Assembly (NCBI RefSeq): GCF_014858005.1
Contig: NZ_JACYOT010000001.1
Location: 124,001-188,000 of the forward strand
Direction: 5' to 3'
From: Propioniciclava soli
GTDB lineage: Bacteria > Actinomycetota > Actinomycetes > Propionibacteriales > Propionibacteriaceae
Length of the DNA stretch: 64,000 nt
Part shown: positions 8,082 to 43,145 of the stretch, one piece after another
How positions within the stretch are numbered: position 1 is the first letter of the stretch
Layout: every line of letters starts with the position of its first letter
Made by a program: the position numbers and the translations under genes
The notes under the pieces: model-generated
What the model was told of the DNA's origin: nothing
Databases searched by the model: none
The model's input: the letters and a program-made list of their open reading frames with translations, nothing else

Positions 8082-9608
8082 ATGACTTCGACCCTGCCAA
8101 CCGGCACCGAAGCCGGGCCGGCCGGCGCGTCCGCCCCTGCGCCGATGCCCGCATTCCCGGCGCCCGCCCTCCCGGCGCCCGCCCTCCCGGCACCCGCGCA
8201 GCCGACAACCGCGCCCTCGGGGGCCCGGGAGCAGCTCGCTGCCCGCTACGCCGCCCAGCATCGCCGTCGGACGTGGGCCGCCGACACCCTGCAGGTGCTC
8301 GCCTGGATGGTGGTGGTGCTGCCCATCGGCCTGTGGCTCCACGACGGCGGCTGGAGCGCCCTGACCGCCTCGGCCGCCGGCCTGATGCGCGGCGTCGGCA
8401 TCCTCACCGGCCTGGTGGCGACCTCCGCGATGGTCCTCATGCTGTGGCTCGCGGCGCGGGTGCCGTTCATCGACCGCACCCTCGGCCACGACCGCGCCCT
8501 GGCCCTCCACAAGGCGCTCGGCCAGTGGACCTTCGGCGGTCTGGTGCTGCACGGCGTCTACCTCGTCACCGGGTACGCGATGGCCGACCAGCTGAGCTGG
8601 TCCGCCGAGTTCGCCACCCTGTGGGGGGTGGGCGACTTCGTCCTCGCCGTGGTCGCAACGGGCCTCCTCGCCGTGGTGGCGGTCACGTCCGTCGCCGCCG
8701 CCCGCCGCCGGCTGGGCCACGAGGTGTGGCAGGGGATCCACCTGGTCACCTACGCCGCCATCCTCCTCGCATTGCCCCATCAGTTCTCGATGGGTGGGCT
8801 CTTCGCCGAGGGGCCGGCGCTCTGGTTCTGGCTGGCGCTGTGGGGGGCGACCTTCTTCGTGCTACTGACCCACCGCGTCCTCGTACCGCTCTTCGCGTCC
8901 GCCGAGCACCGCCTGCGCGTGTCGGCCGTGACGTGGGAGACCCCCGACACCGTGGCCATCGAGATGACCGGACGCCGCATCGCCCAGCTGGGCATCCGGC
9001 CGGGGCACTTCGCTCACTTCCGCTTCCTGCAGGGCGGGCTGTGGTGGCACCAGCACCCCTTCTCGCTGTCGGCCGCGCCGCACAAGGACACCATCCGCAT
9101 CACCGTTCGCATGCTCGGTGAGGGCACCCGTCGTCTCGCCAGCACCCTGCGCCCGGGCACGCCCGTGCTCATCGAGGGGCCGTACGGCGTGTTCACCGAC
9201 GCCGCCCGCACGGCCCCCGACGTGGTGCTCGTGGGGTTCGGGATCGGCGTCGCCCCGATCCGCGCCCTGCTGGAGGGCACCGACGTCGTGCCGGGCCACG
9301 CCACGGTCATCGTCCGGGCCTCCAGCGAGGTCGAGGTGGCCCACCGGGCCGAGCTGGAGGCGTGGTGCCGGGCCCGCGGCGTCCGCCTGCACGTGCTGAC
9401 CGGCCACCGCGGCGTCCTGGCCGACGGCTCGACATCCTGGCTGCCCGCCTCCCATCTGCACTGGCGCCTGACCGACCTCACCGGCCCGCTGGACGAGGCC
9501 GACGTGTACGTCTGCGGGCCGGCGGGCGCGACCGAGCTGGTGGCCGCCGAGGCGCTCGCCGCGGGCCTGCCCCCCGAGCGGCTGCATCGGGAGGAGTTCG
9601 CCTGGTGA
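8082..9608 (+). CDS. Ferric-reductase-like transmembrane flavoprotein oxidoreductase
   Basis: A 508-residue membrane oxidoreductase. A Pro/Ala-rich N terminus with PAPAL repeats is followed by about six membrane helices of the ferric-reductase-like domain, with haem-candidate His residues in ALHKALGQ, LVLHGVYLV and WQGIHLVTYA. A ferredoxin-NADP+ reductase-like C-terminal half starts near residue 280: FAD-binding HPFSLSAAP, then GVAPIRALLEG and the ending VYVCGPAGATELV for NAD(P)H. It should pass electrons from cytosolic NAD(P)H across the membrane. The natural acceptor could be the FMN-binding protein encoded at 14082, which lies just beyond the thiamin ECF operon. Confidence 0.8.
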   Translation: MTSTLPTGTEAGPAGASAPAPMPAFPAPALPAPALPAPAQPTTAPSGAREQLAARYAAQHRRRTWAADTLQVLAWMVVVLPIGLWLHDGGWSALTASAAGLMRGVGILTGLVATSAMVLMLWLAARVPFIDRTLGHDRALALHKALGQWTFGGLVLHGVYLVTGYAMADQLSWSAEFATLWGVGDFVLAVVATGLLAVVAVTSVAAARRRLGHEVWQGIHLVTYAAILLALPHQFSMGGLFAEGPALWFWLALWGATFFVLLTHRVLVPLFASAEHRLRVSAVTWETPDTVAIEMTGRRIAQLGIRPGHFAHFRFLQGGLWWHQHPFSLSAAPHKDTIRITVRMLGEGTRRLASTLRPGTPVLIEGPYGVFTDAARTAPDVVLVGFGIGVAPIRALLEGTDVVPGHATVIVRASSEVEVAHRAELEAWCRARGVRLHVLTGHRGVLADGSTSWLPASHLHWRLTDLTGPLDEADVYVCGPAGATELVAAEALAAGLPPERLHREEFAW

Positions 9609-9646
9609 GCCAGGGCTGGACGCCGTGACCGAACGCGCGCGAGGGC

Positions 9647-27420: not shown

Positions 27421-28320
27421 GTGGACGCGCCCCTGACCGACCCGGGCCACCCGGTGACGGGAGGACGCGCCCGGTTCGCGGCCTCACCGGTCGTCCTTGT
27501 GCTGATCGCGATCGCCACCGTCCAGATCGGGTCGTCCGCCGCGAAGGACCTCTTCGCCGTCACCGGACCGCTGGCCGTCACGTGGCTGCGCCTGCTGGCC
27601 GGGGCCGTCGTGCTCGGGCTCGTGGCGCGCCCGCGGCTGGCCGGGCGGCCGGCGTCCGACTGGGCGTGGGTCGTGGGGTACGGGCTGGTGATGGCCGCGA
27701 TGAACCTCTCGTTCTACGCCGCGATCGCCCGCATCCCCATCGGCATGGCAGTCACCCTCGAGTTCATCGGACCGCTCGGTGTGGCGGTGGCCACCTCGCG
27801 TCGGCTGCGCGACCTCGGGTGGGTGGGCCTGGCCGGTCTCGGAATCGTGCTGCTCGGCTTCACCCCGGGAGAGCTCGATCCGGTCGGCGTCCTGCTGGCC
27901 CTGGTCGCCGGCGCCTGCTGGGCCGGCTACATCCTGCTCGCGCGGCCGGTCGGCCGGAGCTGGGAGGGCGTCACGGGCGTGACGATCGCGCTGTGGACGG
28001 GGCTGGCCGCCATCTCGGTGCCGGTGATCGCGCTCGGCGCCTGGCCCCCCGCGGCCGCGACCCCCTGGCTGCAGGGCCTGCTCGTGGGGATCCTGGCGTC
28101 GGTCATCCCCTACGGGCTCGAAATGATCGCCCTCCGTCGGATCGAACCGCGGGTGTTCGGCGTCCTCATGAGCCTCGAACCCGCGGCGGCCGCCCTGGCC
28201 GCCCTCGTGCTGCTCGGGGAGGAGTTGCGGCCGGTGGAGGTCGCCGCCCTGGCCTGCGTGGTCGCCGCGTCCATCGGCGTGGTCCACGCGCCCGGACGCC
28301 CCCGGCGCGACGCCGCCTAA
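27421..28320 (+). CDS. EamA/RhtA-type drug/metabolite exporter
   Basis: A 299-residue protein with ten membrane helices in two five-helix halves, of the EamA (DMT superfamily) family, closest in layout to the threonine/homoserine exporter RhtA: ATVQIGSSAAKDLFAVTGPL in the first half, MAVTLEFIGPLGVAVATSRR, and IPYGLEMIALRRIEPRVFGV with SLEPAAAALAALVLLGE in the second. GTG at 27421 is 2 bp after the pcnA stop, so it is probably co-transcribed. It should export an amino acid or similar small molecule. Confidence 0.82.
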   Translation: MDAPLTDPGHPVTGGRARFAASPVVLVLIAIATVQIGSSAAKDLFAVTGPLAVTWLRLLAGAVVLGLVARPRLAGRPASDWAWVVGYGLVMAAMNLSFYAAIARIPIGMAVTLEFIGPLGVAVATSRRLRDLGWVGLAGLGIVLLGFTPGELDPVGVLLALVAGACWAGYILLARPVGRSWEGVTGVTIALWTGLAAISVPVIALGAWPPAAATPWLQGLLVGILASVIPYGLEMIALRRIEPRVFGVLMSLEPAAAALAALVLLGEELRPVEVAALACVVAASIGVVHAPGRPRRDAA

Positions 28321-28495
28321 CGTTCGGCCAGTTCCCGCCCCCGCCCGTTGCCCGGCCGTGGGGCGTGTGTTTGGCTCGGGAGCGAACAGGCCGAAGGGGC
28401 GTCCCCCGTCCCTCCGGGCTCGGGATCACCCACCCACCCCACCCCGGGGTGCCCACACCAGAGCCGGGTCGGCCGGCCGCACAAGGAGCAACGAG

Positions 28496-29278
28496 ATGAC
28501 CAACCAGATCGAAGCCGCGGCGCCCACCGCGACCCGAGGGGCACCGGCCCCTCTCATCGCCGCCCACGACGTCCGCAAGTCCTACCAGGTCGGACGCGAC
28601 TCCGTCGAGATCCTGCACGGGGTCAGCCTGGGCGTCCACGAACAGGAGATGGTCGCGGTCATGGGCCCCTCGGGTTCGGGCAAGTCGACCCTGCTGTACT
28701 GCCTCGCCGGGCTCGAGGCGCCCACCTCCGGCGGCATCATCCTGGCCGGCAAGCCCCTCGATGCCCTGTCCCGCGCCGACCTGGCAAGGATGCGTCGCTC
28801 GCAGGTGGGCTTCGTGTTCCAGTCCTACAACCTCATCCCCACCCTGACCGCCACCGAGAACGTGGCGCTGCCCTACCTGCTCGACAAGGCCAAGCCGCCG
28901 CAGGATCTCATCGCCTCGACGTTGGCCACGGTGGGTCTCGCCGAGCGCGCGGACGCGCGTCCGCCGTCGATGTCGGGCGGCGAGCAGCAGCGCGTGGCGC
29001 TGGCGCGGGTGCTGGCCCAGCAGCCCCAGGTGATCTTCGCCGACGAGCCCACCGGCGCGCTCGACACCCGGACCGGTGAGCTGGTGCTGGCCGAGCTGGT
29101 GCGCATCGCGCACACGCCCGGCCGCTGCGTCCTGGTCGTCACGCACGATCCGAAGGTGGCGGCGTCATGTGACCGGATCCTGTTCATGCGCGACGGCCTC
29201 CTGGTGCGTGAGCTCCACGACGCGTCGGTCGACACGGTCGCCGCGACGCTCGCCGGTCTCGGCTCGCGGGAGGTGTGA
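28496..29278 (+). CDS. ABC exporter ATPase of the lanthipeptide locus
   Basis: A 260-residue MacB/LolD-type ABC ATPase: Walker A MGPSGSGKST (about residues 61-70), Q-loop FVFQSYNLIPTLTATENVALP, signature MSGGEQQRVALARVLA, Walker B QVIFADEPTGALD and H-loop VVTHDPKV. The ATG at 28496 is preceded by AAGGAG. The permease gene follows 3 bp later. It lies about 1.7 kb ahead of the lanthipeptide synthetase in the same direction and may export or give immunity to the peptides. This class of ATPase-FtsX pair is also used for other antimicrobial peptides, so the link rests on position. Confidence 0.85.
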   Translation: MTNQIEAAAPTATRGAPAPLIAAHDVRKSYQVGRDSVEILHGVSLGVHEQEMVAVMGPSGSGKSTLLYCLAGLEAPTSGGIILAGKPLDALSRADLARMRRSQVGFVFQSYNLIPTLTATENVALPYLLDKAKPPQDLIASTLATVGLAERADARPPSMSGGEQQRVALARVLAQQPQVIFADEPTGALDTRTGELVLAELVRIAHTPGRCVLVVTHDPKVAASCDRILFMRDGLLVRELHDASVDTVAATLAGLGSREV

Positions 29279-29281
29279 GCG

Positions 29282-30700
29282 ATGCGCAAGGTCTACGCGG
29301 CGGAGCTGCGTGACTCGTGGCCCGCCTGGCTGGGTGTCTCGCTCGCCTTCGTCATCACCAACCTCTCGTTCGTCAATTCCGCGCTCGTGCTGCGCTCGGG
29401 TTGGGCCGCCGTGGCCGCCGGAAAGATCGACATGATGGACAGCGCCGACTTCACGCTCACCCCGGTGTCCAACTTCGTCTTCTCCGGCATCGTGGGCCTG
29501 ACGGTCATCGCGACCAGCACGTCCATGGTGGTCGACTCGCGGCGCGGCAGCTTGGCGCGCCTGGGCGTGGCCGGCGCCGCGCCGGGCCAGATCGTCAGCT
29601 CGATCATGACGCAGCTGGTGGCGGTCTCCGTCCTGAGCGCCCTGATCGCCAACATCATCGCGGCCGCAACCCTGGACCCGTTCCTCCACTTCCTGACGGT
29701 CGGCGTCGAGTCCGGCCTTGTCCTCGAGCAGCCCGCCCCCGTCTACGACGTCGGGGTCATGGTGCTCGCCAATGCGGTGTGCATCGGGGTGGCCCTGCTC
29801 GGTGGCTACGGCCAGGCGCGGCGGGCAGCGACCATCCCGCCGGTGGAGGCGCTCCGTCAGGCCGTCGCCGCCCCCGGGGAGCGGATGACCGTGCTGCGCT
29901 GGATCGGTGCGACGCTGTGCGTGCTGGTGCTCGTGGCGCTCTTCGCCGGCATCTTCGTGATGATGCAGTTCCGCACCAGCGAGACGGTCAGCACGCTGAT
30001 GCAGATGGCCCTGGCGGCGCTGCTGGTCTTCACGGTGCTCGTGGCCATGGTGGCGCCCCTGCTCATCGGGCCGTTAGCCCGCGGCTGGACGGCGCTCGTG
30101 CCTTTCCGCGGCCCGACGTGGCAGATCGCGAGGAAGAACGTCTACGTCCGCGGTTCACGATTCTCCCGCTCGGTCGTCCCCATCGTGTTCACCATCGCCC
30201 TGATGCTGGGCTTGTTGAGCCTGGGGCCAACCATTTTCGCGACCTCGGCGGCGAGCGGTTTCGAGGGTGGGCCCATCACCCTCGACAAAGCGGGAATGGG
30301 TGCATTCTTGAGTCTGCTCGGGCCTGCGCTGGCCATCGCTCTCGCGGGTGGGGTGGGAAACCTCTTCATGATGAGCAAGCAGCGCGACGCCGAGCTGGCC
30401 CTGTTCGGCATCACGGGGGCGACCCCGACCCAGCGCAGGGTGTTGCCCATCCTGGAGGCGATCATCCTCACCGTGACGGCGACCATTCCCGCCGTCCTCG
30501 CCCTGGCGCTGATGCTGACGTACCTGTACATCTCGTTCACCGGCGCGGGCCTGGTGGCGGTGTTGTCCGTACCCCTGTCCGCCTGGGTGGTCGGCGTCGG
30601 AGCCACCGGCCTGATCATGGTGGCCGCCACGTTCCTGCCCACGCTCTCGGCGCTCCGGTTGCCCGAGCCCCGGGTGGTGGCCCGGCTCGCCGCGGAGTGA
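29282..30700 (+). CDS. FtsX-like ABC permease of the lanthipeptide locus
   Basis: A 472-residue permease with eight or more membrane helices and an FtsX/MacB-type organisation: N-terminal helix (SWPAWLGVSLAFVITNLSFV), a helix after MVVDSRRGSLARLGVAGAAP, and a second half starting RKNVYVRGSRFSRSVVPIVFTIAL with the coupling block LFGITGATPTQRRVLPI. It has no large extracellular domain of the MacB kind. It forms an exporter with the ATPase encoded 3 bp upstream. A strong hairpin (30729-30761) follows, separating this operon from lanKC. Confidence 0.82.
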   Translation: MRKVYAAELRDSWPAWLGVSLAFVITNLSFVNSALVLRSGWAAVAAGKIDMMDSADFTLTPVSNFVFSGIVGLTVIATSTSMVVDSRRGSLARLGVAGAAPGQIVSSIMTQLVAVSVLSALIANIIAAATLDPFLHFLTVGVESGLVLEQPAPVYDVGVMVLANAVCIGVALLGGYGQARRAATIPPVEALRQAVAAPGERMTVLRWIGATLCVLVLVALFAGIFVMMQFRTSETVSTLMQMALAALLVFTVLVAMVAPLLIGPLARGWTALVPFRGPTWQIARKNVYVRGSRFSRSVVPIVFTIALMLGLLSLGPTIFATSAASGFEGGPITLDKAGMGAFLSLLGPALAIALAGGVGNLFMMSKQRDAELALFGITGATPTQRRVLPILEAIILTVTATIPAVLALALMLTYLYISFTGAGLVAVLSVPLSAWVVGVGATGLIMVAATFLPTLSALRLPEPRVVARLAAE

Positions 30701-30728
30701 GCCCCGACCCACCACGCCATTTCCCCAG

Positions 30729-30761
30729 CAAGGGCCTCGGTCATCGTGACCGGGGCCCTTG
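30729..30761 (+). terminator. Intrinsic-type terminator after the ABC permease
   Basis: CAAGGGCCTCGGTCA (30729-30743) pairs with TGACCGGGGCCCTTG (30747-30761), 15 bp with one mismatch and a TCG loop, followed by TTGG. It lies 28 bp after the permease stop and ahead of the lanKC promoter. Confidence 0.8.
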
Positions 30762-30836
30762 TTGGCGTCCGCCTTGATCGTTTTGGCCACATGGTCAGCC
30801 CCAGGCTGTCGAACGGCCACCGGTGCCGGTATTTCA

Positions 30837-30865
30837 TTGACGAGGTGGGGCGCGCGGAGTTGAAT
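30837..30865 (+). promoter_or_regulatory. Candidate lanKC promoter
   Basis: TTGACG (30837-30842), a 17-bp spacer and TTGAAT (30860-30865) form a good vegetative -35/-10 pair in an AT-richer stretch. The implied transcript starts near 30872 and would have a leader of about 80 nt before the synthetase ATG. Confidence 0.55.
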
Positions 30866-30873
30866 GGGGTCAT

Positions 30874-30914
30874 CGGCAGGAAAAAAGAAATGTTCTCACT
30901 TGAAATTCCTGCCG
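30874..30914 (+). promoter_or_regulatory. Leader hairpin upstream of lanKC
   Basis: CGGCAGGAA (30874-30882) and TTCCTGCCG (30906-30914) are a perfect 9-bp inverted repeat around an A-rich 23-nt loop. It lies right at the predicted transcript start, 38 nt before the lanKC ATG. It could be an operator or an RNA stem controlling the synthetase. Confidence 0.5.
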
Positions 30915-30952
30915 GCGAAAGCACCCCCATCCATTCCCACCAGGAGGCCACC

Positions 30953-33595
30953 ATGGGCGTTCGTCCCGAGTACTTCATGGCAGCGCAGCACGGATCGCCG
31001 TACTACGGCCGTCCGCGGCGCGTCGACGAGCTGATCGGGCCCGGCGAGAGCCTCCAGGGCGAGGAACTGCCCGCCGGTTGGCTGCGGCAGACCTGGGGCG
31101 TCTGGGAGGGCTGGACGCCCCGCGACTGGACGCCGCGCCTCCAGGGCTGGAAGATCCACGTGTCGGCCTCCCTGGGCTGCGCGCGGGAGACGCTGGCCCG
31201 CACCACGCGGGTGTGCGCCGCCCGCGGCGTCGCCTTCAAGTTCCTCCCCGTCGAGGGCATGCTGGCCGACAGCAACGGCAAGCAGAACGACCGCGGTGCA
31301 TCGGGCAAGTTCATCACCATCTACCCCGACGACGACGCCCAGCTGGGCGAGCTGCTCGACGAGCTCGACGAGACCCTGACGGGTCAGGAGGGCCCCTACA
31401 TCCTCAGCGACCTCCGCTTCCGCGACGCCCCCGTGTACGTCCGCTACGGCGCCATCATGGCCCTCAACTTCCCCGACCCCACGGACCGGCCCGTTGCCGC
31501 CATCGTCACCGGAGACGCGCTGACCCTCACCGAGGACCACCGCCAGCCGCGGTTCAGCCTCCCCGACGGCGTCCAGCTGCCGGCCTGCCTGGAGGAGTCG
31601 TATGCCCGGTCGCGCCAGAGCAGCCCGAGCCGGTTGCGCGAGTTCAAGGCCATCTCGGCCCTCCACTTCAGCAACGCCGGTGGCGTCTACAAGGCGACCC
31701 TGCCCGACGGCGCGCGCCACGTCCTGCGCGAGGCGCGGCCCCACACCGGGCTCGACGGACGCGGCCGGGACGCCATCGCGCGGCAGCGTGACGAGGAGAT
31801 CACCCTCACCGAGCTGGCTGACGTGCCCGGCGTCCAGCGGCTGCTGGGCAGCTTCAGCGCCTGGGAGCACCGCTACCTCGAGCTCGAGTACGTCGACGGC
31901 CGCACCCTCACCGCGTGGATGGTGCAGAACAGTGCCTGCGACGTGCGCGACGGCGGCGAGAAGAAGCGCGCCTACGTGCAGCGTGCCCACCACGTTGTGC
32001 GGCAGCTCATCGACACGGTTCAGCGGATCCACGAGCGCGGCTGGTGCATCGGGGACCTCCACCCCGGCAACATCATGGTCACCGAGTCCGACGAGGTGGT
32101 GATTCTCGACTTCGAGGACGCCACGCGACGAGGCGAGGACCGGGCCGTCGGCTTCCGCGTCTTCGAGTTCTGCGCCCCCGAGGAGTTCAGCGCCGAGCAG
32201 GCCGACTGGTACGCGGTGTCGCGCTCGATCATGCTGCTCTACTTCGCCGACTGGGAGCTGGAGGTGATCGCCCCCGCGTTCTGGGACCGCGCGCGGAGCC
32301 GGCTCGCCTCCGAGTTCGGGGCCGAGTCCGCAGCCCAGCTGGACGAGGTGATGGCGCTCTTCCCGGCGACCGAACGTCACCTGCTCTCACCGCGCGAGCC
32401 GGTGGGCCTGTGGGACGAGCGGCCCCACCCGGACGCCGCGATCGTCGCCCTCGACGAGGGCATCACCTGGTCGCGCCAGTTTTCCCCCCGGAACTCCTAC
32501 CCCGGGGACTGCTCCCAGCCGGGAGACGTCAGCGAGACCTGGGGCTACGGGCGGGCCGGTGTGGCCTGGGCCCGGGCCCGGATCGGACGGCCCGTGCCGG
32601 ACGACGACATCGCGGCGCTGGAGCGCGCCGCCGAGGGCTGGACGGCGGAGGACGCCCCCGGCCTGGTCGACGGACTCGCGGGCATCGCCCTGGCCCTCGG
32701 CGAGGTGGGGCGACCCGAGCAGGCCGTCGCCGCCGCGCGAACCGCCCTCGCGGGTGCGGAGGCGCGCCGCCGACTGGACCTCCAGGCCGGGTTGACCGGC
32801 GTCCTGCTCGCCGGCTTCGAGCTGGCCGGCGCGACCCGGGACGACGACCTCCTCGAGCGGTGCCGCACCAGCTACGAACGGCTCCACCGGGCCGTGGCGG
32901 CGGGGGGCAGCAGCCTGGCTGCACTCACGCACCGCCGTGGGCTCCACTTCGGCCTCAGCGGGCTCGCGCTGGTGGACCTCTCCGCCCACCGCGCCACCGG
33001 CGAGGCCCCGCTGCTCGATCGCGCCATCGACCGGATCACCGACGAGGTGGCAGCGTGCTTCGTCACGGCGGACGGCGACATGATGGTCCGCGACGTCGAC
33101 AACAACCGCGCCCTGCCCTACCTCGAGTGGGGGAGCGCCGGCGTCTGGGTGGTCGTGATGATCGCGGAGCGGCTGGCCAAGCAGCAGCTCCTGACCGACG
33201 AACAGCGCGCCGCTTTCGCCCGGGCCTGCTCCTCGGACTTCTACGTCTACCCGAGCCTGCTCCACGGTCGGGCCGGGACGCTCGCGGCCCTCGCGGCGGA
33301 CGGGACGGACCACGCGGAGATCCAGCGGCAACAGGACTTCGTGCTCGACACCCTGTTGCATCGCGAGGGCATGGCCTTCACCGCCGGCGACGGGTTCCTC
33401 AGGCTGAGTTCCGATCTGGCCACCGGCGCCGCCGGGGTCGCGCTCGGGCTGCACAGCGTCCGGCGTGGGCGCCCCTTCGACTGGCTGCCGCTCGCCAAGG
33501 GCACGGCGGACGCCCTCGCCGGGCTCCCCACCCCGCAGCCGGTGCCCGGATTTGTCCCGGCCAGCCTGGCCGGCGCGATGGTCGGCCACGGCTGA
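30953..33595 (+). CDS. lanKC: Class III lanthipeptide synthetase (LanKC)
   Basis: An 880-residue three-domain enzyme that phosphorylates Ser/Thr in precursor peptides, eliminates phosphate and closes rings. Lyase domain, about 60-210: LQGWKIHVSASLG, GVAFKFLPVEG, GASGKFITIYPDD, GPYILSDLRFRDAPVYVRYG. Kinase domain, about 230-450: glycine loop HFSNAGGVYKA, VLREARPHTGLDG, catalytic IGDLHPGNIMV (Asp368, Asn373), metal LDFED (Asp386). Cyclase domain, about 550-880, has LanC-type G-x-x-G helices (GLVDGLAGIAL, LHFGLSGLAL). Its zinc Cys are absent: EWGSAG, and LLHGRAG where LanL/LanC enzymes have CHG. This places it in class III rather than IV. ATG at 30953 follows AGGAGG. Four precursor genes follow. 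Confidence 0.95.
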   Translation: MGVRPEYFMAAQHGSPYYGRPRRVDELIGPGESLQGEELPAGWLRQTWGVWEGWTPRDWTPRLQGWKIHVSASLGCARETLARTTRVCAARGVAFKFLPVEGMLADSNGKQNDRGASGKFITIYPDDDAQLGELLDELDETLTGQEGPYILSDLRFRDAPVYVRYGAIMALNFPDPTDRPVAAIVTGDALTLTEDHRQPRFSLPDGVQLPACLEESYARSRQSSPSRLREFKAISALHFSNAGGVYKATLPDGARHVLREARPHTGLDGRGRDAIARQRDEEITLTELADVPGVQRLLGSFSAWEHRYLELEYVDGRTLTAWMVQNSACDVRDGGEKKRAYVQRAHHVVRQLIDTVQRIHERGWCIGDLHPGNIMVTESDEVVILDFEDATRRGEDRAVGFRVFEFCAPEEFSAEQADWYAVSRSIMLLYFADWELEVIAPAFWDRARSRLASEFGAESAAQLDEVMALFPATERHLLSPREPVGLWDERPHPDAAIVALDEGITWSRQFSPRNSYPGDCSQPGDVSETWGYGRAGVAWARARIGRPVPDDDIAALERAAEGWTAEDAPGLVDGLAGIALALGEVGRPEQAVAAARTALAGAEARRRLDLQAGLTGVLLAGFELAGATRDDDLLERCRTSYERLHRAVAAGGSSLAALTHRRGLHFGLSGLALVDLSAHRATGEAPLLDRAIDRITDEVAACFVTADGDMMVRDVDNNRALPYLEWGSAGVWVVVMIAERLAKQQLLTDEQRAAFARACSSDFYVYPSLLHGRAGTLAALAADGTDHAEIQRQQDFVLDTLLHREGMAFTAGDGFLRLSSDLATGAAGVALGLHSVRRGRPFDWLPLAKGTADALAGLPTPQPVPGFVPASLAGAMVGHG

Positions 33596-33675
33596 CCCGT
33601 GGCTCGGGGCAGCACGCCCCGACCGCACCCCCTGACCCCCTGACCCTTCGACACCCGAGAGGAGGTGTATCGCAC

Positions 33676-33801
33676 ATGGCCGAGATCATCGATCTCCAGG
33701 ACGACAGCCCCGAGGTTCCCGACGAGCAGAAGGCGTCCAACCGCAGCTGGGGCTTCTGCCACAACAGCTACCAGTCCTACGTGTTCTGCCTCGTCAAGTG
33801 A
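33676..33801 (+). CDS. lanA1: Class III lanthipeptide precursor A1
   Basis: A 41-residue peptide with strong GAGAGGAGGTG at 33658-33666. The leader begins MAEIIDLQ, the I/L-x-D-L-Q motif recognised by class III synthetases, and is acidic through Pro15 and Lys19. The putative core starts at Ser21. Two blocks follow: Ser21-Asn-Arg-Ser24-Trp-Gly-Phe-Cys28 and Ser31-Tyr-Gln-Ser34-Tyr-Val-Phe-Cys38, each Ser-x2-Ser-x3-Cys, the labionin/lanthionine pattern. It ends LVK. It is the first of four paralogues and lies 80 bp after lanKC. Ring type (labionin or lanthionine) and cleavage point cannot be fixed from sequence. Confidence 0.92.
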   Translation: MAEIIDLQDDSPEVPDEQKASNRSWGFCHNSYQSYVFCLVK

Positions 33802-33851
33802 CGCGAGCAGGCACGTGAACCTATCGAGCACCATGTGAGGAGGTGAATTCA

Positions 33852-33977
33852 ATGGCCGATGTCATCGATCTCCAGGAAGCCTGGGACAACACTCCCCAGG
33901 AGGAGAAGGCGTCCAACTACTCCCTCGCGCTCTGCCACAAGAGCTACAAGTCGTGGGTCGCGTGCTGGGTGAAGTGA
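33852..33977 (+). CDS. lanA2: Class III lanthipeptide precursor A2
   Basis: A 41-residue paralogue of A1 with GGAGGTG upstream. The leader is MADVIDLQ followed by an acidic stretch with Trp11, Pro15 and the EEKA run to residue 20. The core starts at Ser21, with Ser21-Asn-Tyr-Ser24-Leu-Ala-Leu-Cys28 and Ser31-Tyr-Lys-Ser34-Trp-Val-Ala-Cys38, then WVK. Spacing of both Ser-x2-Ser-x3-Cys blocks is identical to A1, while the residues inside the rings differ. The core is basic and hydrophobic. Confidence 0.92.
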   Translation: MADVIDLQEAWDNTPQEEKASNYSLALCHKSYKSWVACWVK

Positions 33978-34026
33978 AGCGCCGACCACGTCGATCCCCA
34001 TCCACCACCCGAAGGAGGTGACACCC

Positions 34027-34152
34027 ATGGCCGAGATCCTCGATCTCCAGGATGGTGCGGAGGACGCACCGCAGGAGGAGAAGGCGTCGCGCCTGAGCCT
34101 GCGGTTCTGCCGCAACTCCTACATCTCGCTCGCGCTCTGCTTCGTCAAGTGA
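34027..34152 (+). CDS. lanA3: Class III lanthipeptide precursor A3
   Basis: A 41-residue paralogue with GAAGGAGGTG upstream. The leader is MAEILDLQ, then an acidic stretch with Pro15 and EEKA. Core: Ser21-Arg-Leu-Ser24-Leu-Arg-Phe-Cys28, Arg29-Asn30, Ser31-Tyr-Ile-Ser34-Leu-Ala-Leu-Cys38, FVK. This is the most hydrophobic second ring of the set and has three Arg in the core. Confidence 0.92.
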   Translation: MAEILDLQDGAEDAPQEEKASRLSLRFCRNSYISLALCFVK

Positions 34153-34197
34153 GCAGCGCGCACCACCCGATTCACACACCGAGGAGGTGACAACACC

Positions 34198-34320
34198 ATG
34201 GCCGACATCATCGATCTGCAGGATTCCGACGAGGTTCCCGCCGAGGAGAAGGGCTCGTTCGTCTCGTACGCGTTCTGCCGCAACTCCTACCGCAGCGAGA
34301 AGTTCTGCTGGAAGTGGTGA
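34198..34320 (+). CDS. lanA4: Class III lanthipeptide precursor A4
   Basis: A 40-residue paralogue with GAGGAGGTG upstream. The leader is MADIIDLQ, acidic, with Pro14 and EEKG. It is one residue shorter than the others. Core: Ser20-Phe-Val-Ser23-Tyr-Ala-Phe-Cys27, Arg-Asn, Ser30-Tyr-Arg-Ser33-Glu-Lys-Phe-Cys37, then WKW in place of the -VK end. It is the most divergent of the four, with a charged second ring (Glu-Lys). A perfect terminator hairpin follows 80 bp later. Confidence 0.92.
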   Translation: MADIIDLQDSDEVPAEEKGSFVSYAFCRNSYRSEKFCWKW

Positions 34321-34400
34321 CAACCGAGCCGGATCACCCGGGGTCCACGCGGGCAGCGCCTATCTGCCCGACCTCGACCCCGCGGTCCGAGTGACAAACG

Positions 34401-34433
34401 CCGCCGCCACCCGTGAGACACGGGTGGCGGCGG
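34401..34433. terminator. Bidirectional terminator after the lanA array
   Basis: CCGCCGCCACCCGTG (34401-34415) and CACGGGTGGCGGCGG (34419-34433) form a perfect 15-bp stem with an AGA loop. It lies between the convergent lanA4 and glycogen phosphorylase genes and could serve both. Confidence 0.85.
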
Positions 34434-34464: not shown

Positions 34465-37026
34465 TCAGATGACGGGCTGGGTGTGCCAGATCCGCTTGAG
34501 GTAGTCGCGCATCGAGCGGTCGGAGCTGAAGAAGCCGCTGCGGGCGACGTTCAGCACGGCCGAGCGCGTCCAGGAGTCGACGTCGGCGTACTTCTCCTCG
34601 ACCTTCGCCTGGGTGGCGAGGTAGGAGTCGAAGTCGGCCAGCACCATGAAACGATCGTTGTGCACCAGGTTGGTCACGACCGAGTCGAACAGGTAACGGT
34701 CGCCGTCGGAGAAGTGACCCGACCAGATCAGGTCCAGCGCCGCCTTCAGGCGGGGGTTGCTCTCGTAGTACGTCCCCGGGTGGTAGCCCTGCGCGCCCAG
34801 CTGCGCGACCTCCGGCTCGCTCATGCCGAACAGGAAGAAGTGCTTGTCACCCACCAGTTCGCGGATCTCGACGTTCGCGCCGTCGTCGGTGCCGATCGTC
34901 AGGGCGCCGTTGAGCGCGAACTTCATGTTGCCCGTGCCGGACGCCTCCATGCCGGCCAACGAGATCTGCTCGCTCAGGTCGGCGGCGGGGATCAGCTTCT
35001 CGGCCAGCGTCACGTTGTAGTTGGCGGGGAAGGCGACCTTGAGGCGTCCCTCGAGAACGGGATCGTCGTTGACGATCGCGGCCACCTTGTTGATGAGGTG
35101 GATCGTGTCCTTCGCCATCTTGTAACCGGGCGCCGCCTTGGCGCCGAACACGACGGTGCGCGGCGTCAGGTCGGACGCGGCGATCGCGCCGGAGTGCACC
35201 TGCTCGTACAGCGACACGATGTGCAGCAGCTTGAGCGACTGGCGCTTGTACTCGTGCAGGCGCTTGACCATCACGTCCAGCAGGTGCCCGTCGGGCAGCT
35301 CGATGCCGTCGCGCTGGGCCAGCAGGTCGGTGAGCCGCGTCTTGTTCCAGGCCTTGGCCGCGCGGAACCGCTCGCGGAAGTCCGGGTCGTCGGCGTAGGG
35401 CTCCAGCTCACGCAGCCGCTCGAGGTCGGTGACCCAGCCCGAGCCGATGGTGTCGGTGATGAGCTCGGAGAGCTTCGGGTTCGCCATGCGCACGAAGCGC
35501 CGTGGCGTGACGCCGTTGGTCACGTTGGTGAACTTGTCGGGGTAGAGCTCGGAGAAGTCCGGCAGCACCTTGTCGCGCAGCAGCTGGCTGTGCAGTTCCG
35601 CCACACCGTTCACCTTCGTGCCCGCCACGGTGGCCAGGTAGGCCATCCGGACGCCGCGCGAGGGGTACTCCGCGATGATCGACATGCGACGCGCGCGCAG
35701 CTCGTCACCGGGGAAGGCCTCCCGCACGCGGGCGAGGAACTCGTCGTTGATCTGGTAGATGATCTCGAGGTGGCGCGGCAGCAGCCGGCCGAGCAGCTCG
35801 GTCGACCAGATCTCCAGCGCCTCGGGCAGCAGCGTGTGGCAGGTGTACGCGAAGCACTGCTGGGTGACCTCCCACGCCTCGTCCCAGTCGAAGCCGTGGT
35901 CGTCGACCAGGATGCGCATGAGCTCCGGCACCGCGATCACCGGGTGGGTGTCGTTGAGCTGGAAGTGGATCCGCTCGGGCAGCCGGTGGAGGTCGAAGCC
36001 CTCCTCGAGCTCGTTGTCGATGAAGTCGCGCAGCGAGCAGGCCACGAAGAAGTACTGCTGCTGCAGGCGCAGCTCCTTGCCCTGCGGCGTGGAGTCCTCG
36101 GGGTAGAGCACCTTCGAGATGTTCTCGGCGAACGTCTGTGCCCGCACGGCGTCCGCGTAGTCGCCGGAGTTGAAGATCTGGAGGTCGAACGCCTGCGTGG
36201 CCTGGGCGCTCCACAGCCGCAGCGTGTTGACGCGGCCGTTCAGGTAGCCCGGCACCATGTAGTTGTAGGGGACGCCGAGCACGTTCCACTCCGGCACCCA
36301 CCGGGTGCGCGCGGTGCCCGCGGCGTCGGTGTACTTCTCGGTGTGACCGCCGAAGTGCACCGTCACGGACGCCTCCGGGTGCGGGAACTCCCACGGCGAG
36401 CCGAGCGCCAGCCACGTGTCCGGCTGCTCGACCTGGCGTCCGTCGACGAAGGTCTGGCGGAAGATGCCGTACTCGTAGCGGATGCCGTACCCGATGCACG
36501 GCACGTTCATCGTGGCGAGGGAGTCGATGAAGCACGCAGCGAGCCGGCCGAGGCCGCCGTTGCCGAGGCCGGGCTCGACCTCCTGGGCGCGGAGCGTCGC
36601 GAGATCGAGGCCGCAGAGCTCGAGGCCGCGCTGGGCGATGTCGCCGAGGTCGGTGGCCAGCAGCGCGTTGCCGAGCTGGCGGCCGAGCAGGTACTCCGCC
36701 GAGAGGTAGCCGACCGTCTTGGCCTGCGACTCGCGGGTCTTGCGCCCGGTCTCGAGCCAGCGGGCCATCAGGTAGTTCTTCACCGTGCTGGCGAGCGCGA
36801 GGTACTGGTCGTTGATCGAGCTGCGGGACAGCGCCACACCCTGGTTGGTGTTGAGCTCGTGCAGGAACTCCTTGACGAACCCGTCCACCGAGAAGGGCGG
36901 CGGGGAGACGGGCGCCGTCGCCAGCGGGTGGCTCGGCGTGCTGCTGGGGCCGTACACGCGGTGATCGGTCGACGGGGACTCGTCCGCAGTGGGAGCCGGC
37001 CCGGACGTCTGGATGTAATCAGGCAT
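34465..37026 (-). CDS. glgP: Glycogen/alpha-glucan phosphorylase
   Basis: An 853-residue GT35 phosphorylase of the bacterial GlgP type. Motifs: VEPGLGNGGLGRLAACFIDSL (substrate and PLP-phosphate region), QLNDTHPVIAVPELMRIL, TNVTNGVTPRRF, VKRLHEYKRQSL, and the PLP-lysine block EASGTGNMKFALNGA. It releases glucose-1-phosphate from storage glucan. The N-terminal tail of about 55 residues is Ser/Pro-rich. Start at 37026 was chosen from GAGG just upstream, with short spacing. No other glycogen gene is adjacent. It stands between lanA4 and the S9 peptidase and is unlikely to belong to the lanthipeptide cluster. Confidence 0.93.
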   Translation of the reverse strand: MPDYIQTSGPAPTADESPSTDHRVYGPSSTPSHPLATAPVSPPPFSVDGFVKEFLHELNTNQGVALSRSSINDQYLALASTVKNYLMARWLETGRKTRESQAKTVGYLSAEYLLGRQLGNALLATDLGDIAQRGLELCGLDLATLRAQEVEPGLGNGGLGRLAACFIDSLATMNVPCIGYGIRYEYGIFRQTFVDGRQVEQPDTWLALGSPWEFPHPEASVTVHFGGHTEKYTDAAGTARTRWVPEWNVLGVPYNYMVPGYLNGRVNTLRLWSAQATQAFDLQIFNSGDYADAVRAQTFAENISKVLYPEDSTPQGKELRLQQQYFFVACSLRDFIDNELEEGFDLHRLPERIHFQLNDTHPVIAVPELMRILVDDHGFDWDEAWEVTQQCFAYTCHTLLPEALEIWSTELLGRLLPRHLEIIYQINDEFLARVREAFPGDELRARRMSIIAEYPSRGVRMAYLATVAGTKVNGVAELHSQLLRDKVLPDFSELYPDKFTNVTNGVTPRRFVRMANPKLSELITDTIGSGWVTDLERLRELEPYADDPDFRERFRAAKAWNKTRLTDLLAQRDGIELPDGHLLDVMVKRLHEYKRQSLKLLHIVSLYEQVHSGAIAASDLTPRTVVFGAKAAPGYKMAKDTIHLINKVAAIVNDDPVLEGRLKVAFPANYNVTLAEKLIPAADLSEQISLAGMEASGTGNMKFALNGALTIGTDDGANVEIRELVGDKHFFLFGMSEPEVAQLGAQGYHPGTYYESNPRLKAALDLIWSGHFSDGDRYLFDSVVTNLVHNDRFMVLADFDSYLATQAKVEEKYADVDSWTRSAVLNVARSGFFSSDRSMRDYLKRIWHTQPVI

Positions 37027-37184
37027 GTCCTCAAGCCTAGGGGTGTTGTGTGACGGCGAAGTCACGCGAACGCCCCCCGACTGCCGACGTCGGTGTGGGT
37101 TTCCATCTGTTTCCTCCGGAGAGCGGTTGCCACCGGGGGTGAGGACGCCGCGCGCGCCGGCCCGGCGTCCCCCAGGCCCGCGAC

Positions 37185-39314
37185 TCAGCCCTGCGCCGGT
37201 GCCCCCAGGACGTCCGGCAGCGTTGGCGTCCGGCCGTGGACGTGCTCGCCGACGAACCCCAGCACCACCTCGTACCAGACCTTTGCGTGCTGGGGCTGCA
37301 GGATCCAGTGGTTCTCGTCGGGGAAGTACAGGAAGCGGTGCGGGCTCTGGCCGTGGGCGTCGGCCGGCAGGCCGGACGCCGACAGCAGCTCCCACCACAG
37401 CCGCAGCCCCTCGCCGATGGGCACCCGGTAGTCCTTGTCGCCGTGGATCACCAGCATCGGCGTGGTGATCTGCCCGACGAAGCGGTGCGGCGAGTGCGCC
37501 TCGGCGAGGCCGCCCATCTCGCGCGACCAGTAGAAGGGGGCATCGGTGGTGGGGCCGAACTGGTCCAACGCCCACAGGCTGGCGTGGGTCACGATGGCCG
37601 CGAACCGGTCGGTGTGCCCGGCGATCCAGTTGGCCATGTAGCCGCCGAACGAGCCGCCCATCGCCACCGTCCTCGACCCGTCGATGTCGTCGCGCGCCTC
37701 GGTGGCGTCCGTGATCGCCAGCAGGTCGGTGTACGGCGCGTCACCCCACGCGCCCCAGCCGCGCTGGAGGAAGTCGTACCCGTACCCCGTGCTCAGCGCC
37801 GGGTCGGGCAGCAGCACGGCGTAGCCCTGGGCAACGGCGTTCCACGGCGTCCACCGCCAGCTCCAGGCGTTCCACGAGCCCACCGGGCCGCCGTGGATCC
37901 ACAGCAGCAACGGGGCGGGGGCGTCCGCCGAGGCCCCCTCGGGCAGGCAAAGCCAGGCCCGCACCCGGACGCCGTCCGCGGCGGTCGTCTCCACCTCGGT
38001 CAGCGTGCCGGGCAGGTCGGGCCGCTCGACGGGGTTGGGCAGCCGCGTCGCGCCGGCGGCGTCCAGCCGCACGACCTCGCTGGGGTAGGCATAGCTCGAC
38101 CGGACGCCGACGACCGTCCCGTCGGGCCCAATCGCGGCCGCCGAGTAGGCCGCCTCGTCGGTGAGCCGGGTGACCTCACCGGAGCCGGCGTCGACGCGGA
38201 ACAGCGGGCCCCGGCCGTCCTCGTCGGCCTGCACCAGCACCGCGGAACCGTCGGGGTACCAGGCCAGCGGGTGGGGCCACTGGTCCCAGGTCTCGGCGAG
38301 CGGCGTCACGGCGCCCGAGGCCACGTCCAGCAGGGCGAGGTGCACCGTGGTGGCCGTGTCGCGGGTGCCGCGGCGTCCGGTGGTGATGACGGCGCGGGCG
38401 CCGCCTCGGCCAATGGGCCCCGGTGCGTGGTGGACGTCGTCGTCGCCGGCCACGATCTCCCGCGTCGTGCCCGCCGCGACGTCGATCAGCACGATGCCGT
38501 CGTTGCGCGCGCCCTGCGCGACGGCGGTCGTGACACCGGCCAGCGCGAACGACCCGTCGGGCGCGACGTGCAGCCCGCCGCCGCGCAACCGCGCCCCCAG
38601 GCCCCGGGTCAGCAGGCGCAGCCGCTTGCGCGGCCCCGCGTCGACCGTGCCCGGCAGGTCGGGGTCGGTCGGGGGATCGTCCGCGTCGGTGTCGTCTGCG
38701 GCCGGCTGGGGCTCGTCGGCGGGGGCGTCCTCCACCGCGAACACGTGCGGGGCGTCCGGGCCGAGGTCGGCGTCCCAGTACCGCACCTGCGCGTCGGTGT
38801 GCAGGATGGCCGCGACCTTCTTCTCCTTGCGCAGCGCGCGCGCCTGCGCGTCCGTCTTCTCCGGGTCGTCCGACGCCTCGGCGACCGGCAGCAGGCCGGC
38901 GACCACCAGGACGCCACCCTCGCGCCCGGTGTGCACGGACTGGACGCCGCCCGGCCGCGACACCACCAGGCGGGCCTCGCCGCCCGCGGCGGGAATCATC
39001 CACAGGGCGGGCACCGGGTCGTCACCGTCGGCGTCCGGGTCGGGCCGCGCGCTGATGAAGTACAGGTTGCCGTCGGCGTCGTACGCGGCGCCGGACTCGC
39101 CCTTGGCCGAGCGCGTCACCCGGCGCGCGGGCTGCTCCCCGGTGGGGTCCAGCTCCCAGATGGCGTTGGCGTACCGGGTCTTCTTCGCGTCCAGCGTCGA
39201 GACGATGGTGGCGATGCGACGCCCGTCGGGGCTGAGGGCCAGCCCGTTCACCCGCGGGTGGGCGATGAAGTGGTCGAGGTCGTGGAACGGCGTCTGCGGC
39301 CGGCGGTGGCTCAT
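37185..39314 (-). CDS. S9 family (prolyl oligopeptidase/acylaminoacyl) peptidase
   Basis: A 709-residue serine peptidase: an N-terminal beta-propeller (LALSPDGRRIATIVS and further blades) and a C-terminal alpha/beta-hydrolase domain. The domain has WIHGGPVGSWNAWSWRW, the nucleophile elbow TVAMGGSFGGYMANWI (Ser in GGSFGG), the Asp region LVIHGDKDYRVP and His in FPDENHWI. It looks cytosolic. Such enzymes release N-terminal amino acids or cut after Pro in short peptides. Some class III lanthipeptide clusters use a prolyl oligopeptidase as leader protease; here the gene is 2.9 kb from lanA4 on the other strand, so that role is only a possibility. An alternative ATG lies at 39323. Confidence 0.88.
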   Translation of the reverse strand: MSHRRPQTPFHDLDHFIAHPRVNGLALSPDGRRIATIVSTLDAKKTRYANAIWELDPTGEQPARRVTRSAKGESGAAYDADGNLYFISARPDPDADGDDPVPALWMIPAAGGEARLVVSRPGGVQSVHTGREGGVLVVAGLLPVAEASDDPEKTDAQARALRKEKKVAAILHTDAQVRYWDADLGPDAPHVFAVEDAPADEPQPAADDTDADDPPTDPDLPGTVDAGPRKRLRLLTRGLGARLRGGGLHVAPDGSFALAGVTTAVAQGARNDGIVLIDVAAGTTREIVAGDDDVHHAPGPIGRGGARAVITTGRRGTRDTATTVHLALLDVASGAVTPLAETWDQWPHPLAWYPDGSAVLVQADEDGRGPLFRVDAGSGEVTRLTDEAAYSAAAIGPDGTVVGVRSSYAYPSEVVRLDAAGATRLPNPVERPDLPGTLTEVETTAADGVRVRAWLCLPEGASADAPAPLLLWIHGGPVGSWNAWSWRWTPWNAVAQGYAVLLPDPALSTGYGYDFLQRGWGAWGDAPYTDLLAITDATEARDDIDGSRTVAMGGSFGGYMANWIAGHTDRFAAIVTHASLWALDQFGPTTDAPFYWSREMGGLAEAHSPHRFVGQITTPMLVIHGDKDYRVPIGEGLRLWWELLSASGLPADAHGQSPHRFLYFPDENHWILQPQHAKVWYEVVLGFVGEHVHGRTPTLPDVLGAPAQG

Positions 39315-42122: not shown

Positions 42123-43145
42123 ATGCTGCGCTTCGTCGTCCGGCGGCTGCTGCTGCTGGTTCCGGTGCTCTTCGGGCTGAGCCTGCTGCTGTTCGCCTGG
42201 CTGCGCGCGCTGCCGGGTGACCCGGCGCGCGCGCTGCTGGGGGACCGGGCCACGCCCCAGGGCATCGAGCGCCTCAACGCGCAGTACGGGTTCGACCAGC
42301 CGCTGCCCGTGCAGTACGTGCGTTACATGGGCCAGCTGCTGCAGGGGAACTTCGGCAACAGCCCGCGCACCGGCCAACCGGTGCTGGCCACGTTCGTGGA
42401 GCGCTTCCCCGCCACGGTGGAGCTCTCGGTGGCGGCGCTGCTGTTCGCGGTGGTGGTCGGCATCCCGCTCGGGTATTTCGCGGCCAAGCGAGCGGGCGGC
42501 GTCCTCGACCTGGTGGCCGTCGGCAGCTCGCTCGCGGGCGTCGTCATCCCGGTGTTCGTGCTCGCCTACCTGCTGAAGGTGGTGTTCGCGATCGGGCTGC
42601 CGGGCCTGGACTGGCTGGCGGTGCTGCCGCCGTCGGGGCGTCAGGACGTGCGGATCAACGCCACCCACATCACCAACTTCTACGTGCTCGACGGGTTGAT
42701 GACACGGGAGTGGGACGCGGCGTGGGACGCCGTCCGCCACCTCATCCTGCCCGCGCTGGCGCTGGGGTCGATCCCCCTGGCGGCCATCACCCGCATGACG
42801 CGGGCGTCGGTGCTCGAGGTGCTGGGCGAGGACTACGTCCGCACCGCCCGCGCCAAGGGCCTGGCCCGGGGTCTCATCACCCGCCGCCACGTCCTCAAGA
42901 ACGCCATGCTGCCGGTCATCACGATGATCGGCCTGCTCACCGGGCAGTTGCTCTCCGGGGCAGTGCTCACCGAGAGCGTGTTCGCGTTCAACGGCATCGG
43001 CAGCTACCTGTTCGACGCCATCGCGACGCTCGACTACGCCGTGCTGCAGGGCTTCATCCTGTTCATCGCGCTGATCTACGCGCTGGTGAACCTGGTGGTC
43101 GACATCGTGTACGGCCTCTTCGACCCGAGGATGCGTGTGCGATGA
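42123..43145 (+). CDS. Dpp-type ABC permease, DppB-like
   Basis: A 340-residue permease with six helices: LRFVVRRLLLLVPVLFGLS at the N terminus, TGQPVLATFVERFPATVELS, and the EAA loop EDYVRTARAKGLARGLITRRHVLKNAMLP. It ends normally (LFDPRMRVR), which makes a useful contrast to the stop-less paralogue at 50877. It forms the pore with the DppC-like protein, whose ATG overlaps its stop. Confidence 0.92.
   Translation: MLRFVVRRLLLLVPVLFGLSLLLFAWLRALPGDPARALLGDRATPQGIERLNAQYGFDQPLPVQYVRYMGQLLQGNFGNSPRTGQPVLATFVERFPATVELSVAALLFAVVVGIPLGYFAAKRAGGVLDLVAVGSSLAGVVIPVFVLAYLLKVVFAIGLPGLDWLAVLPPSGRQDVRINATHITNFYVLDGLMTREWDAAWDAVRHLILPALALGSIPLAAITRMTRASVLEVLGEDYVRTARAKGLARGLITRRHVLKNAMLPVITMIGLLTGQLLSGAVLTESVFAFNGIGSYLFDAIATLDYAVLQGFILFIALIYALVNLVVDIVYGLFDPRMRVR

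What the first reader, a model, noticed from the sequence alone, without database searches (positions are those of the whole stretch)
28496..34433. Four-peptide class III lanthipeptide cluster with double Ser-x2-Ser-x3-Cys cores
A LanKC synthetase is followed by four short genes, each with its own strong ribosome-binding site and the leader start MA-x-x-x-DLQ. Each core has two Ser-x2-Ser-x3-Cys blocks. In known class III products (labyrinthopeptin, catenulipeptin) that pattern yields labionin or lanthionine rings. Four different cores from one enzyme is unusual and suggests a mixture of related two-ring peptides. I cannot tell whether this exact set has been described.
Basis: partly seen in the sequence, partly recalled or inferred. 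Interest (0 to 1): 0.92.

Follow-up and report, generated by a model that had tools for sequence, protein, structure and literature searches.

The report
Scattered seven-peptide class III lanthipeptide system
The four peptide genes are real and belong to a larger set of seven small ring-forming peptides, spread over three places in the genome and apparently all made by one enzyme, most of whose types recur in related bacteria; it is an unusual layout of a known kind of natural product.

Summary
One LanKC (window 30953-33595) is followed by four precursor genes (33676-34320), each with a ribosome-binding site, an (I/L)DLQ leader and two Ser-x2-Ser-x3-Cys blocks; chance gives about 0.06 such double blocks per window. 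But it is an incomplete picture. The genome has one LanKC and seven precursors at three loci: A-D here; E and F about 70 kb upstream beside a histidine kinase, response regulator, ABC exporter and S9 prolyl oligopeptidase; G on another contig beside two FtsX-type permeases. In all five close relatives these four genes accompany LanKC (in G155 over two contigs). Most precursor types recur across six genomes, with core dN/dS below 1 for six of seven types. A promoter box learned only from relatives ranks the starts of E, LanKC and the ABC ATPase first of 165,862 positions. Most likely one LanKC modifies all seven and the distant peptidase starts leader removal at a conserved proline. Multi-precursor class III clusters are known (paenithopeptin), so this is a new variant of a known kind. 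Chemistry and activity are untested.

The parts
28317..28352 (+). promoter box (CTAACGTTCGGCCAG, then TTGCC at the -35 place) before the ABC operon
   Evidence: third best of 165,862 positions with a matrix built only from relatives; sites before the ABC ATPase in G005, G155 and G008 score 17.4, 23.6 and 21.0, none of them used in training
28496..29278 (+). ABC transporter ATPase (LolD/MacB type)
   Evidence: Pfam ABC_tran 118 bits; a homologue of 61-84% identity lies in the LanKC stretch of G005, G155, G008, G028, G156, G031 and G083, not in the five stretches of G074, G089 and G098, where only 33-35% hits were seen
29282..30700 (+). FtsX-type permease partner
   Evidence: Pfam FtsX 39.8 bits; found next to the ATPase in the same seven genomes
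30806..30841 (+). promoter box (CTGTCGAACGGCCA, 17-base spacer, TTGAC) before LanKC
   Evidence: second best of 165,862 positions with the relatives-only matrix
30953..33595 (+). LanKC, class III lanthionine synthetase (lyase, kinase, cyclase)
   Evidence: NF038151 668.5 bits, cut-off 575; lyase and kinase residues kept, both zinc-ligand cysteines absent
33676..33801 (+). precursor A, SNRSWGFCHNSYQSYVFC core
   Evidence: same type in G005, G155 and, in four copies, G008
33852..33977 (+). precursor B, SNYSLALCHKSYKSWVAC core
   Evidence: type assigned in the five other genomes of the core group
34027..34152 (+). precursor C, SRLSLRFCRNSYISLALC core; the only one of seven above the Pfam RamS cut-off
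   Evidence: 27.2 bits, cut-off 24.3
34198..34320 (+). precursor D, SFVSYAFCRNSYRSEKFC core
   Evidence: type assigned in G005, G155, G028, G156

Best explanation
This is the synthetase half of a dispersed class III lanthipeptide system. One LanKC dehydrates and cyclises seven related precursors (A-D beside it, E and F about 70 kb away, G on another contig), each into a small two-ring peptide. A LuxR-type response regulator encoded at the second locus most likely switches on three operons (ABC ATPase-permease, LanKC with A-D, and E-F with exporter and peptidase) through a shared box placed 17 bases before the -35 element. The exporter and the S9 prolyl oligopeptidase of the second locus export the peptides and begin leader removal at the conserved proline of P-x-E-(E/Q)-K, with trimming by another peptidase. 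The ABC-FtsX pair probably gives self-protection or helps export. Shown from sequence: gene content, a single LanKC, recurring precursor types, shared box. Inferred: modification in trans, cleavage at Pro, regulation, transport. Unknown: ring type and biological activity; a secreted mixture of cationic, aromatic-rich antimicrobial or surface-active peptides is the guess.
For: One LanKC match in the genome and seven precursor matches at three loci. Second locus: histidine kinase, response regulator, E, F, exporter, S9 peptidase. Homologues of these four proteins lie in the LanKC stretch of all five core-group relatives, at 47-61% (kinase), 71-81% (regulator), 73-85% (exporter), 68-74% (peptidase), in G155 over two contigs, and are not in the window's cluster. 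Precursor types are shared: mean core identity 0.63 for same type across genomes (81 pairs), 0.38 for different types (489 pairs); 0 of 2000 label permutations reached it; 60 of 63 reciprocal best hits join the same type. Core dN/dS 0.21-0.53 for types 0, A, B, C, E, F. The relatives-only promoter matrix ranks the three operon starts first of 165,862 positions, scores 30.3, 22.9, 21.5, next 12.7. P-x-x-x-K precedes the core in 32 of 42 tabulated precursors, in all of A-F and in G; cleavage of flavipeptin precursor after Pro(-12) by the prolyl oligopeptidase FlaP is the precedent (PMC10885120, passages).
Against: No chemistry or expression data. Core dN/dS of type D is 1.03, so D shows no clear constraint; all dN/dS values rest on few sites in three genomes. 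The four A copies of G008 and F of G028 lack the proline though a peptidase is encoded there, so cleavage at Pro cannot be the rule for every member. F is frameshifted in G005 and no type-0 gene was recognised in the window's genome, so not every member is indispensable. G fits no type clearly (best core score with E), and the third locus has no box (best 10.6). The box was not recovered at the LanKC start of G156, in G031 or in most of the sister clade. I set the type labels from core similarity and order, so the permutation test is partly circular; the training sites of the box were picked by eye.
Confidence: 0.72

Rival explanations
1. A self-contained four-peptide class III cluster, with unrelated proteases and transporters elsewhere; E, F and G are remnants.
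For: A-D lie directly behind LanKC with strong ribosome-binding sites; the third locus lacks the box, and no LanKC, ATPase, exporter or peptidase match was found in its 16 kb.
Against: E has the best promoter box of all (30.3); E and F have ribosome-binding sites and leaders, and their types follow D in the same order in G155, with E intact and F frameshifted in G005; relatives keep exporter and peptidase with LanKC.
Confidence: 0.12
2. The precursor array is a birth-and-death family in which most copies are redundant or decaying and only one or two peptides matter.
For: G008 has four near-identical A copies and the sister clade has identical tandem copies (L051 four, L049 two); F frameshifted in G005; type D core dN/dS 1.03.
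Against: Distinct types recur across genera with core identity well above that of paralogues, and dN/dS is below 1 for six of seven types; no two of the seven cores in the window's genome are alike.
Confidence: 0.13
3. The peptides are morphogens or biosurfactants of the SapB/AmfS kind, not antimicrobials.
For: The layout resembles the ram cluster as I recall it (response regulator, LanKC, small peptide, ABC exporter); precursor C passes the RamS model and B, A, E, F and G score below its cut-off.
Against: Six of seven precursors fail the RamS cut-off, D without any match; cores are cationic and aromatic; several different peptides and a prolyl oligopeptidase are not part of the ram layout as recalled.
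Confidence: 0.25

Closest known systems
Paenithopeptin (ptt) cluster, class III, Paenibacillus
   Same: One LanKC, seven precursors, one of them (PttA1) apart from the rest within the cluster; products depend on PttKC modification (PMC8960859, passages)
   Different: Firmicutes; M16B peptidase pair cleaving at Q-A-(A/V)-(D/E), not an S9 enzyme; one cluster; no conserved ordered precursor types in the passages I saw
Flavipeptin (Fla), class III, Kribbella flavida
   Same: Class III precursor with prolyl oligopeptidase FlaP in the cluster, cleaving after a leader Pro (PMC10885120 and PMC5719810, passages)
   Different: As recalled a single precursor; here seven, with the peptidase at another locus
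Brevibacterium class III clusters (Bre)
   Same: Actinobacterial LanKC, ABC components, in some a PF00326 peptidase, two Ser/Ser(Thr)/Cys blocks (PMC5719810, passages)
   Different: One or two precursors per cluster; only one of six precursors with Pro in the leader
SapB/AmfS (ram/amf), Streptomyces
   Same: Class III enzyme; as recalled a LuxR-type regulator and ABC export; precursor C matches RamS
   Different: One precursor as recalled; six of the seven here are below the RamS cut-off
Prochlorosins (ProcM), class II
   Same: One promiscuous synthetase, many precursors (search listing with starts of abstracts)
   Different: Different enzyme class; as recalled far more varied cores

Membership tests
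Class III lanthipeptide biosynthesis | Trifunctional LanKC with lyase, kinase and LanC-like domain | tested here: met
   NF038151 668.5 bits (cut-off 575); class IV model 287.1 (cut-off 650); Pfam RamC_N, Pkinase, LANC_like
Class III lanthipeptide biosynthesis | Lyase and kinase catalytic residues | tested here: met
   K67, H69, K96, K110, K119, D153, R164, R197 and D386-F387-E388 stand at the ThurKC positions K65, H67, K94, K108, K117, D152, R163, R191 and DFE; counted by me on the alignment (with an inferred numbering shift of 3), residues named in PMC10604976 (passages), numbering
Class III lanthipeptide biosynthesis | Cyclase without the zinc-binding Cys-Cys-His set | tested here: met
   E725, L770, H771 at the three ligand positions (matched by my counting): both cysteines absent, a histidine present
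Class III lanthipeptide biosynthesis | Leader LxLQ-type motif and Ser-x2-Ser-x3-Cys core blocks | tested here: met
   a relaxed motif ([LIVAF]x[LM]Q) in 41 of 42 tabulated precursors, two exact blocks in 35 of 42; all four of the window have both
Class III lanthipeptide biosynthesis | Lanthionine or labionin in the product | not testable with these tools
   needs chemistry
SapB/AmfS (RamS) precursor family | RamS model score at or above the curated cut-off | tested here: not met
   Pfam cut-off 24.3: C 27.2 passes; B 22.4, G 21.5, F 18.8, A 15.9, E 15.6 below; D no match. NCBIfam SapB_AmfS_lanti: C 25.0 at the cut-off of 25, the other six below or without match
FlaP-type maturation | S9 prolyl oligopeptidase linked to the precursors | tested here: met
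   PF00326 in 8 of 8 proteins scanned for it (G155; G000, G005, G008, G156, G028, G031, G083); tblastn homologues also in the stretches of G074, G089 and G098, one of them a short match. In G000 it lies at the second locus
FlaP-type maturation | Proline in the leader as cleavage site | tested here: inconclusive
   P-x-x-x-K in 32 of 42; absent in the four A copies of G008, F of G028 and the five type-0 peptides; the type-0 peptides have a TPA stretch instead
FlaP-type maturation | Cleavage only of the modified peptide after Pro | not testable with these tools
   needs enzyme assay

The most novel reading that the evidence does not exclude
A many-component class III lanthipeptide: a panel of six to seven distinct two-ring peptides, kept as separate orthologous types across genera, made by one enzyme acting on substrates from three loci and switched on together, whose members act as a set (a mixture with divided tasks) and not as spare copies.
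Probability: 0.27. Interest if true: 0.72.

Novelty: new variant of a known kind. Interest (0 to 1): 0.5.

Why it matters
In the one large survey I saw, most class III precursors are alone in their cluster (PMC7268733, passages). A natural panel with one enzyme and distinct, recurring cores would show which core positions LanKC tolerates and gives a ready test of what decides labionin or lanthionine. It also shows that a class III cluster can be split while its parts keep one predicted promoter box, so cluster-based mining can undercount substrates and miss the peptidase. Six of the seven precursors here fall below the curated Pfam and NCBIfam precursor cut-offs.

Tried and rejected
Considered the S9-like gene at about window 37185-39300 (minus strand; so named by my reading, not scanned) as the leader peptidase: rejected, because the peptidase found with LanKC in relatives has its closest homologue at the second locus (73% identity), and the nearby gene had no match at E 1e-8 in the relatives' stretches. 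Considered chance short ORFs: rejected. Considered that the second locus was an unrelated cluster: rejected because of the E/F types, the shared box, the single LanKC and the order in relatives. The first genome search for the box (two perfect sites in 3.8 Mb, before LanKC and E, among 40 sites with up to 2 mismatches; reversed control 28) is circular because the pattern was read partly off those two sites; the relatives-only matrix replaced it. A genome-contig scan with LanKC found one relative only. Plasmid search: 77 records with a match, all below 60% identity. M1 (AplP-like) trimming: one M1 match in the genome, but M1 rings in 8 of 14 control genomes, so it says little. Whether G is a diverged member of a known type: no clear answer. 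Literature searches that gave nothing on this set: Micropruina with lanthipeptide, 0 papers; lanthipeptide with Propionibacteriaceae, 6 papers, 4 listed, none on such clusters by title and start of abstract; one search was too broad to judge. I saw passages of PMC7268733, PMC8960859, PMC10604976, PMC5719810 and PMC10885120; of all other papers only search listings.
Full report
Observation. The window holds an ABC ATPase (28496-29278), an FtsX-type permease (29282-30700), a LanKC (30953-33595) and four small genes A-D (33676-33801, 33852-33977, 34027-34152, 34198-34320), all on +. Leaders are MA(E/D)(I/V)(I/L)DLQ, and each core has two exact S-x2-S-x3-C blocks with four Ser and no Thr. The double block appears five times in six frames of the window, four of them here; 200 Markov copies gave mean 0.06, maximum 1. 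The LanKC passes NF038151 at 668.5 bits against 575, and fails the class IV model. On the alignment to solved class III enzymes the lyase and kinase residues that PMC10604976 (passages) names are kept, and the two zinc cysteines of LanC are replaced by E725 and L770 while H771 remains (numbering; matching counted by me).

Relatives. Searching the genomes of the family with LanKC gave matches at E <= 1e-40 in 16 of 198 genomes. Five genomes besides the window's (G005, G155, G008, G028, G156) have a LanKC 57-69% identical; I call these six the core group. G031 and four genomes of one more genus (G074, G083, G089, G098; the sister clade) are at 48-52%. G155 contig 103 is the same sequence as the named record JAGPGQ010000177.1, a Micropruina MAG; NCBI puts Micropruina in Propionibacteriales. 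More distant LanKCs of the order (L007-L017, with 1.5 kb on each side) had one precursor-like ORF in 10 of 11 loci and two in the other.

The missing half. In the five core-group relatives the stretch with LanKC also holds a histidine kinase, a LuxR-type response regulator, an ABC exporter and an S9 prolyl oligopeptidase (in G155 the cluster lies on two contigs that both end in LanKC). In the window's cluster none of these was found (one search has only a 30% hit to the ABC ATPase). Their best homologues in the window's genome lie together on the same contig, the peptidase ending 63 kb before the ABC ATPase: regulator 73%, exporter 79%, peptidase 73% identical to the G155 proteins. Reading that stretch (L053) showed histidine kinase C1:82358-83560(-), regulator 83887-84603, precursor E 84841-84966, precursor F 84992-85135 (GTG start), exporter 85297-87129 and peptidase 87126-89108. 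A model of 30 precursors found seven precursors in this genome: A-F and a seventh, G, at C54:151709-151834 with a GAGGAGG ribosome-binding site, followed by two FtsX-type permease frames each 39% identical to the window's permease. One LanKC was found. So one enzyme must serve three loci if all are modified.

Types. Of 42 precursors tabulated from seven genomes, 37 from six genomes were compared (three near-identical A copies of G008 and two of G031 left out; G was found later and is not among them; a model search shows two more matches in G031). Core identity averaged 0.631 for the same type between genomes (81 pairs), 0.376 for different types between genomes (489) and 0.380 within genomes (96); leaders 0.55, 0.46, 0.48. 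None of 2000 label shuffles reached the observed value (mean 0.412, maximum 0.483); 60 of 63 reciprocal best hits were of one type. I assigned types from core similarity and order, so this test is partly circular; the order A-B-C-D-E, shared by G005 and G155 and by this genome with the cut between D and E, is the more independent fact. Substitution counts between G000, G005 and G155 gave core dN/dS of 0.35 (0), 0.49 (A), 0.21 (B), 0.29 (C), 1.03 (D), 0.47 (E), 0.53 (F), from few sites, types 0 and F from one pair each. Losses occur: no type-0 gene was recognised in this genome, F is frameshifted in G005, D or E is missing in G008, A is missing in G028 and G156. G matches no type clearly; its core scores best with E.

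Regulation. Comparing upstream regions showed a box, about TAACCAACGG(G/C)CA, 17 bases before TTGAC, ahead of LanKC and of E. A matrix from eight sites of relatives, none from this genome, was run over the window and L053 on both strands: of 165,862 positions the best three were upstream of E (30.3), LanKC (22.9) and the ABC ATPase (21.5); the fourth scored 12.7. Sites before the ABC ATPase were not in the training set, yet they are among the top three of their stretches in G005, G155 and G008. Against this: the LanKC start of G156 gave no good site, nor did G031; of seven sister-clade stretches only G083 had a site above 20 (20.2), near the start of its ABC ATPase gene; and the third locus has none (best 10.6). 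The likely binder is the linked response regulator; that is inference.

Mechanism. LanKC binds the shared leader, phosphorylates and eliminates up to four Ser per core, and closes two rings. Cleavage after a leader Pro by a prolyl oligopeptidase, efficient only on modified peptide, is known for FlaP (PMC10885120, passages); P-x-x-x-K precedes the core in 32 of 42 precursors, not in four A copies of G008, F of G028 or the five type-0 peptides. Final trimming may fall to another peptidase; the genome has one M1 match, which is common in bacteria. Cores are cationic and aromatic-rich, which fits membrane activity but does not show it.

Known and new. Multi-precursor class III clusters are known: seven in ptt (PMC8960859), 13 identical in Bacillus cereus (PMC7268733), while 57% of class III precursors are alone in their cluster. 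Class III clusters with PF00326 peptidases are known (PMC5719810). What I did not find in the searches, which cover open-licence papers only and of which I saw listings, is a set of class III precursor types conserved in order across genera, or one split over loci with its peptidase and exporter elsewhere. I file it as a new variant of a known kind. The split could still be an assembly error, although both halves lie on one 598 kb contig and each has its own box.

Noticed in passing
L056 (G000:C54) 7710-7835 and 8180-11007: Seventh precursor (G, with an extra Cys in the first block) followed by two tandem FtsX-type permease frames; no match to the window's ABC ATPase at E 1e-3 in the 16 kb, and no promoter box.
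   Followed up: partly
L051, L049, L047, L052: The sister clade (LanKC about 50% identical) has tandem identical or near-identical precursors (L051 four identical, L049 two identical), unlike the distinct panel here.
   Followed up: no
L023 8220-8877: Four near-identical type-A precursors in G008 that lack the conserved leader proline.
   Followed up: no
L024 3965-6781 and L046 4906-7728: G028 and G156 carry two tandem FtsX-type permeases between precursors D and E instead of one before LanKC.
   Followed up: no
G074 (L032, L039, L042, L043): One genome with four LanKC matches at E <= 1e-40.
   Followed up: no
L023 1046 (+): A further box-like site (score 21.1) away from the cluster genes in G008, target unknown.
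   Followed up: no
window 34465-39300 (-): By my reading a glycogen phosphorylase and an S9-family peptidase downstream of the precursors; no match to them in the relatives' LanKC stretches at E 1e-8.
   Followed up: partly
window 42988-43044 (+): A fifth double Ser-x2-Ser-x3-Cys pattern in a translated frame, probably chance.
   Followed up: no
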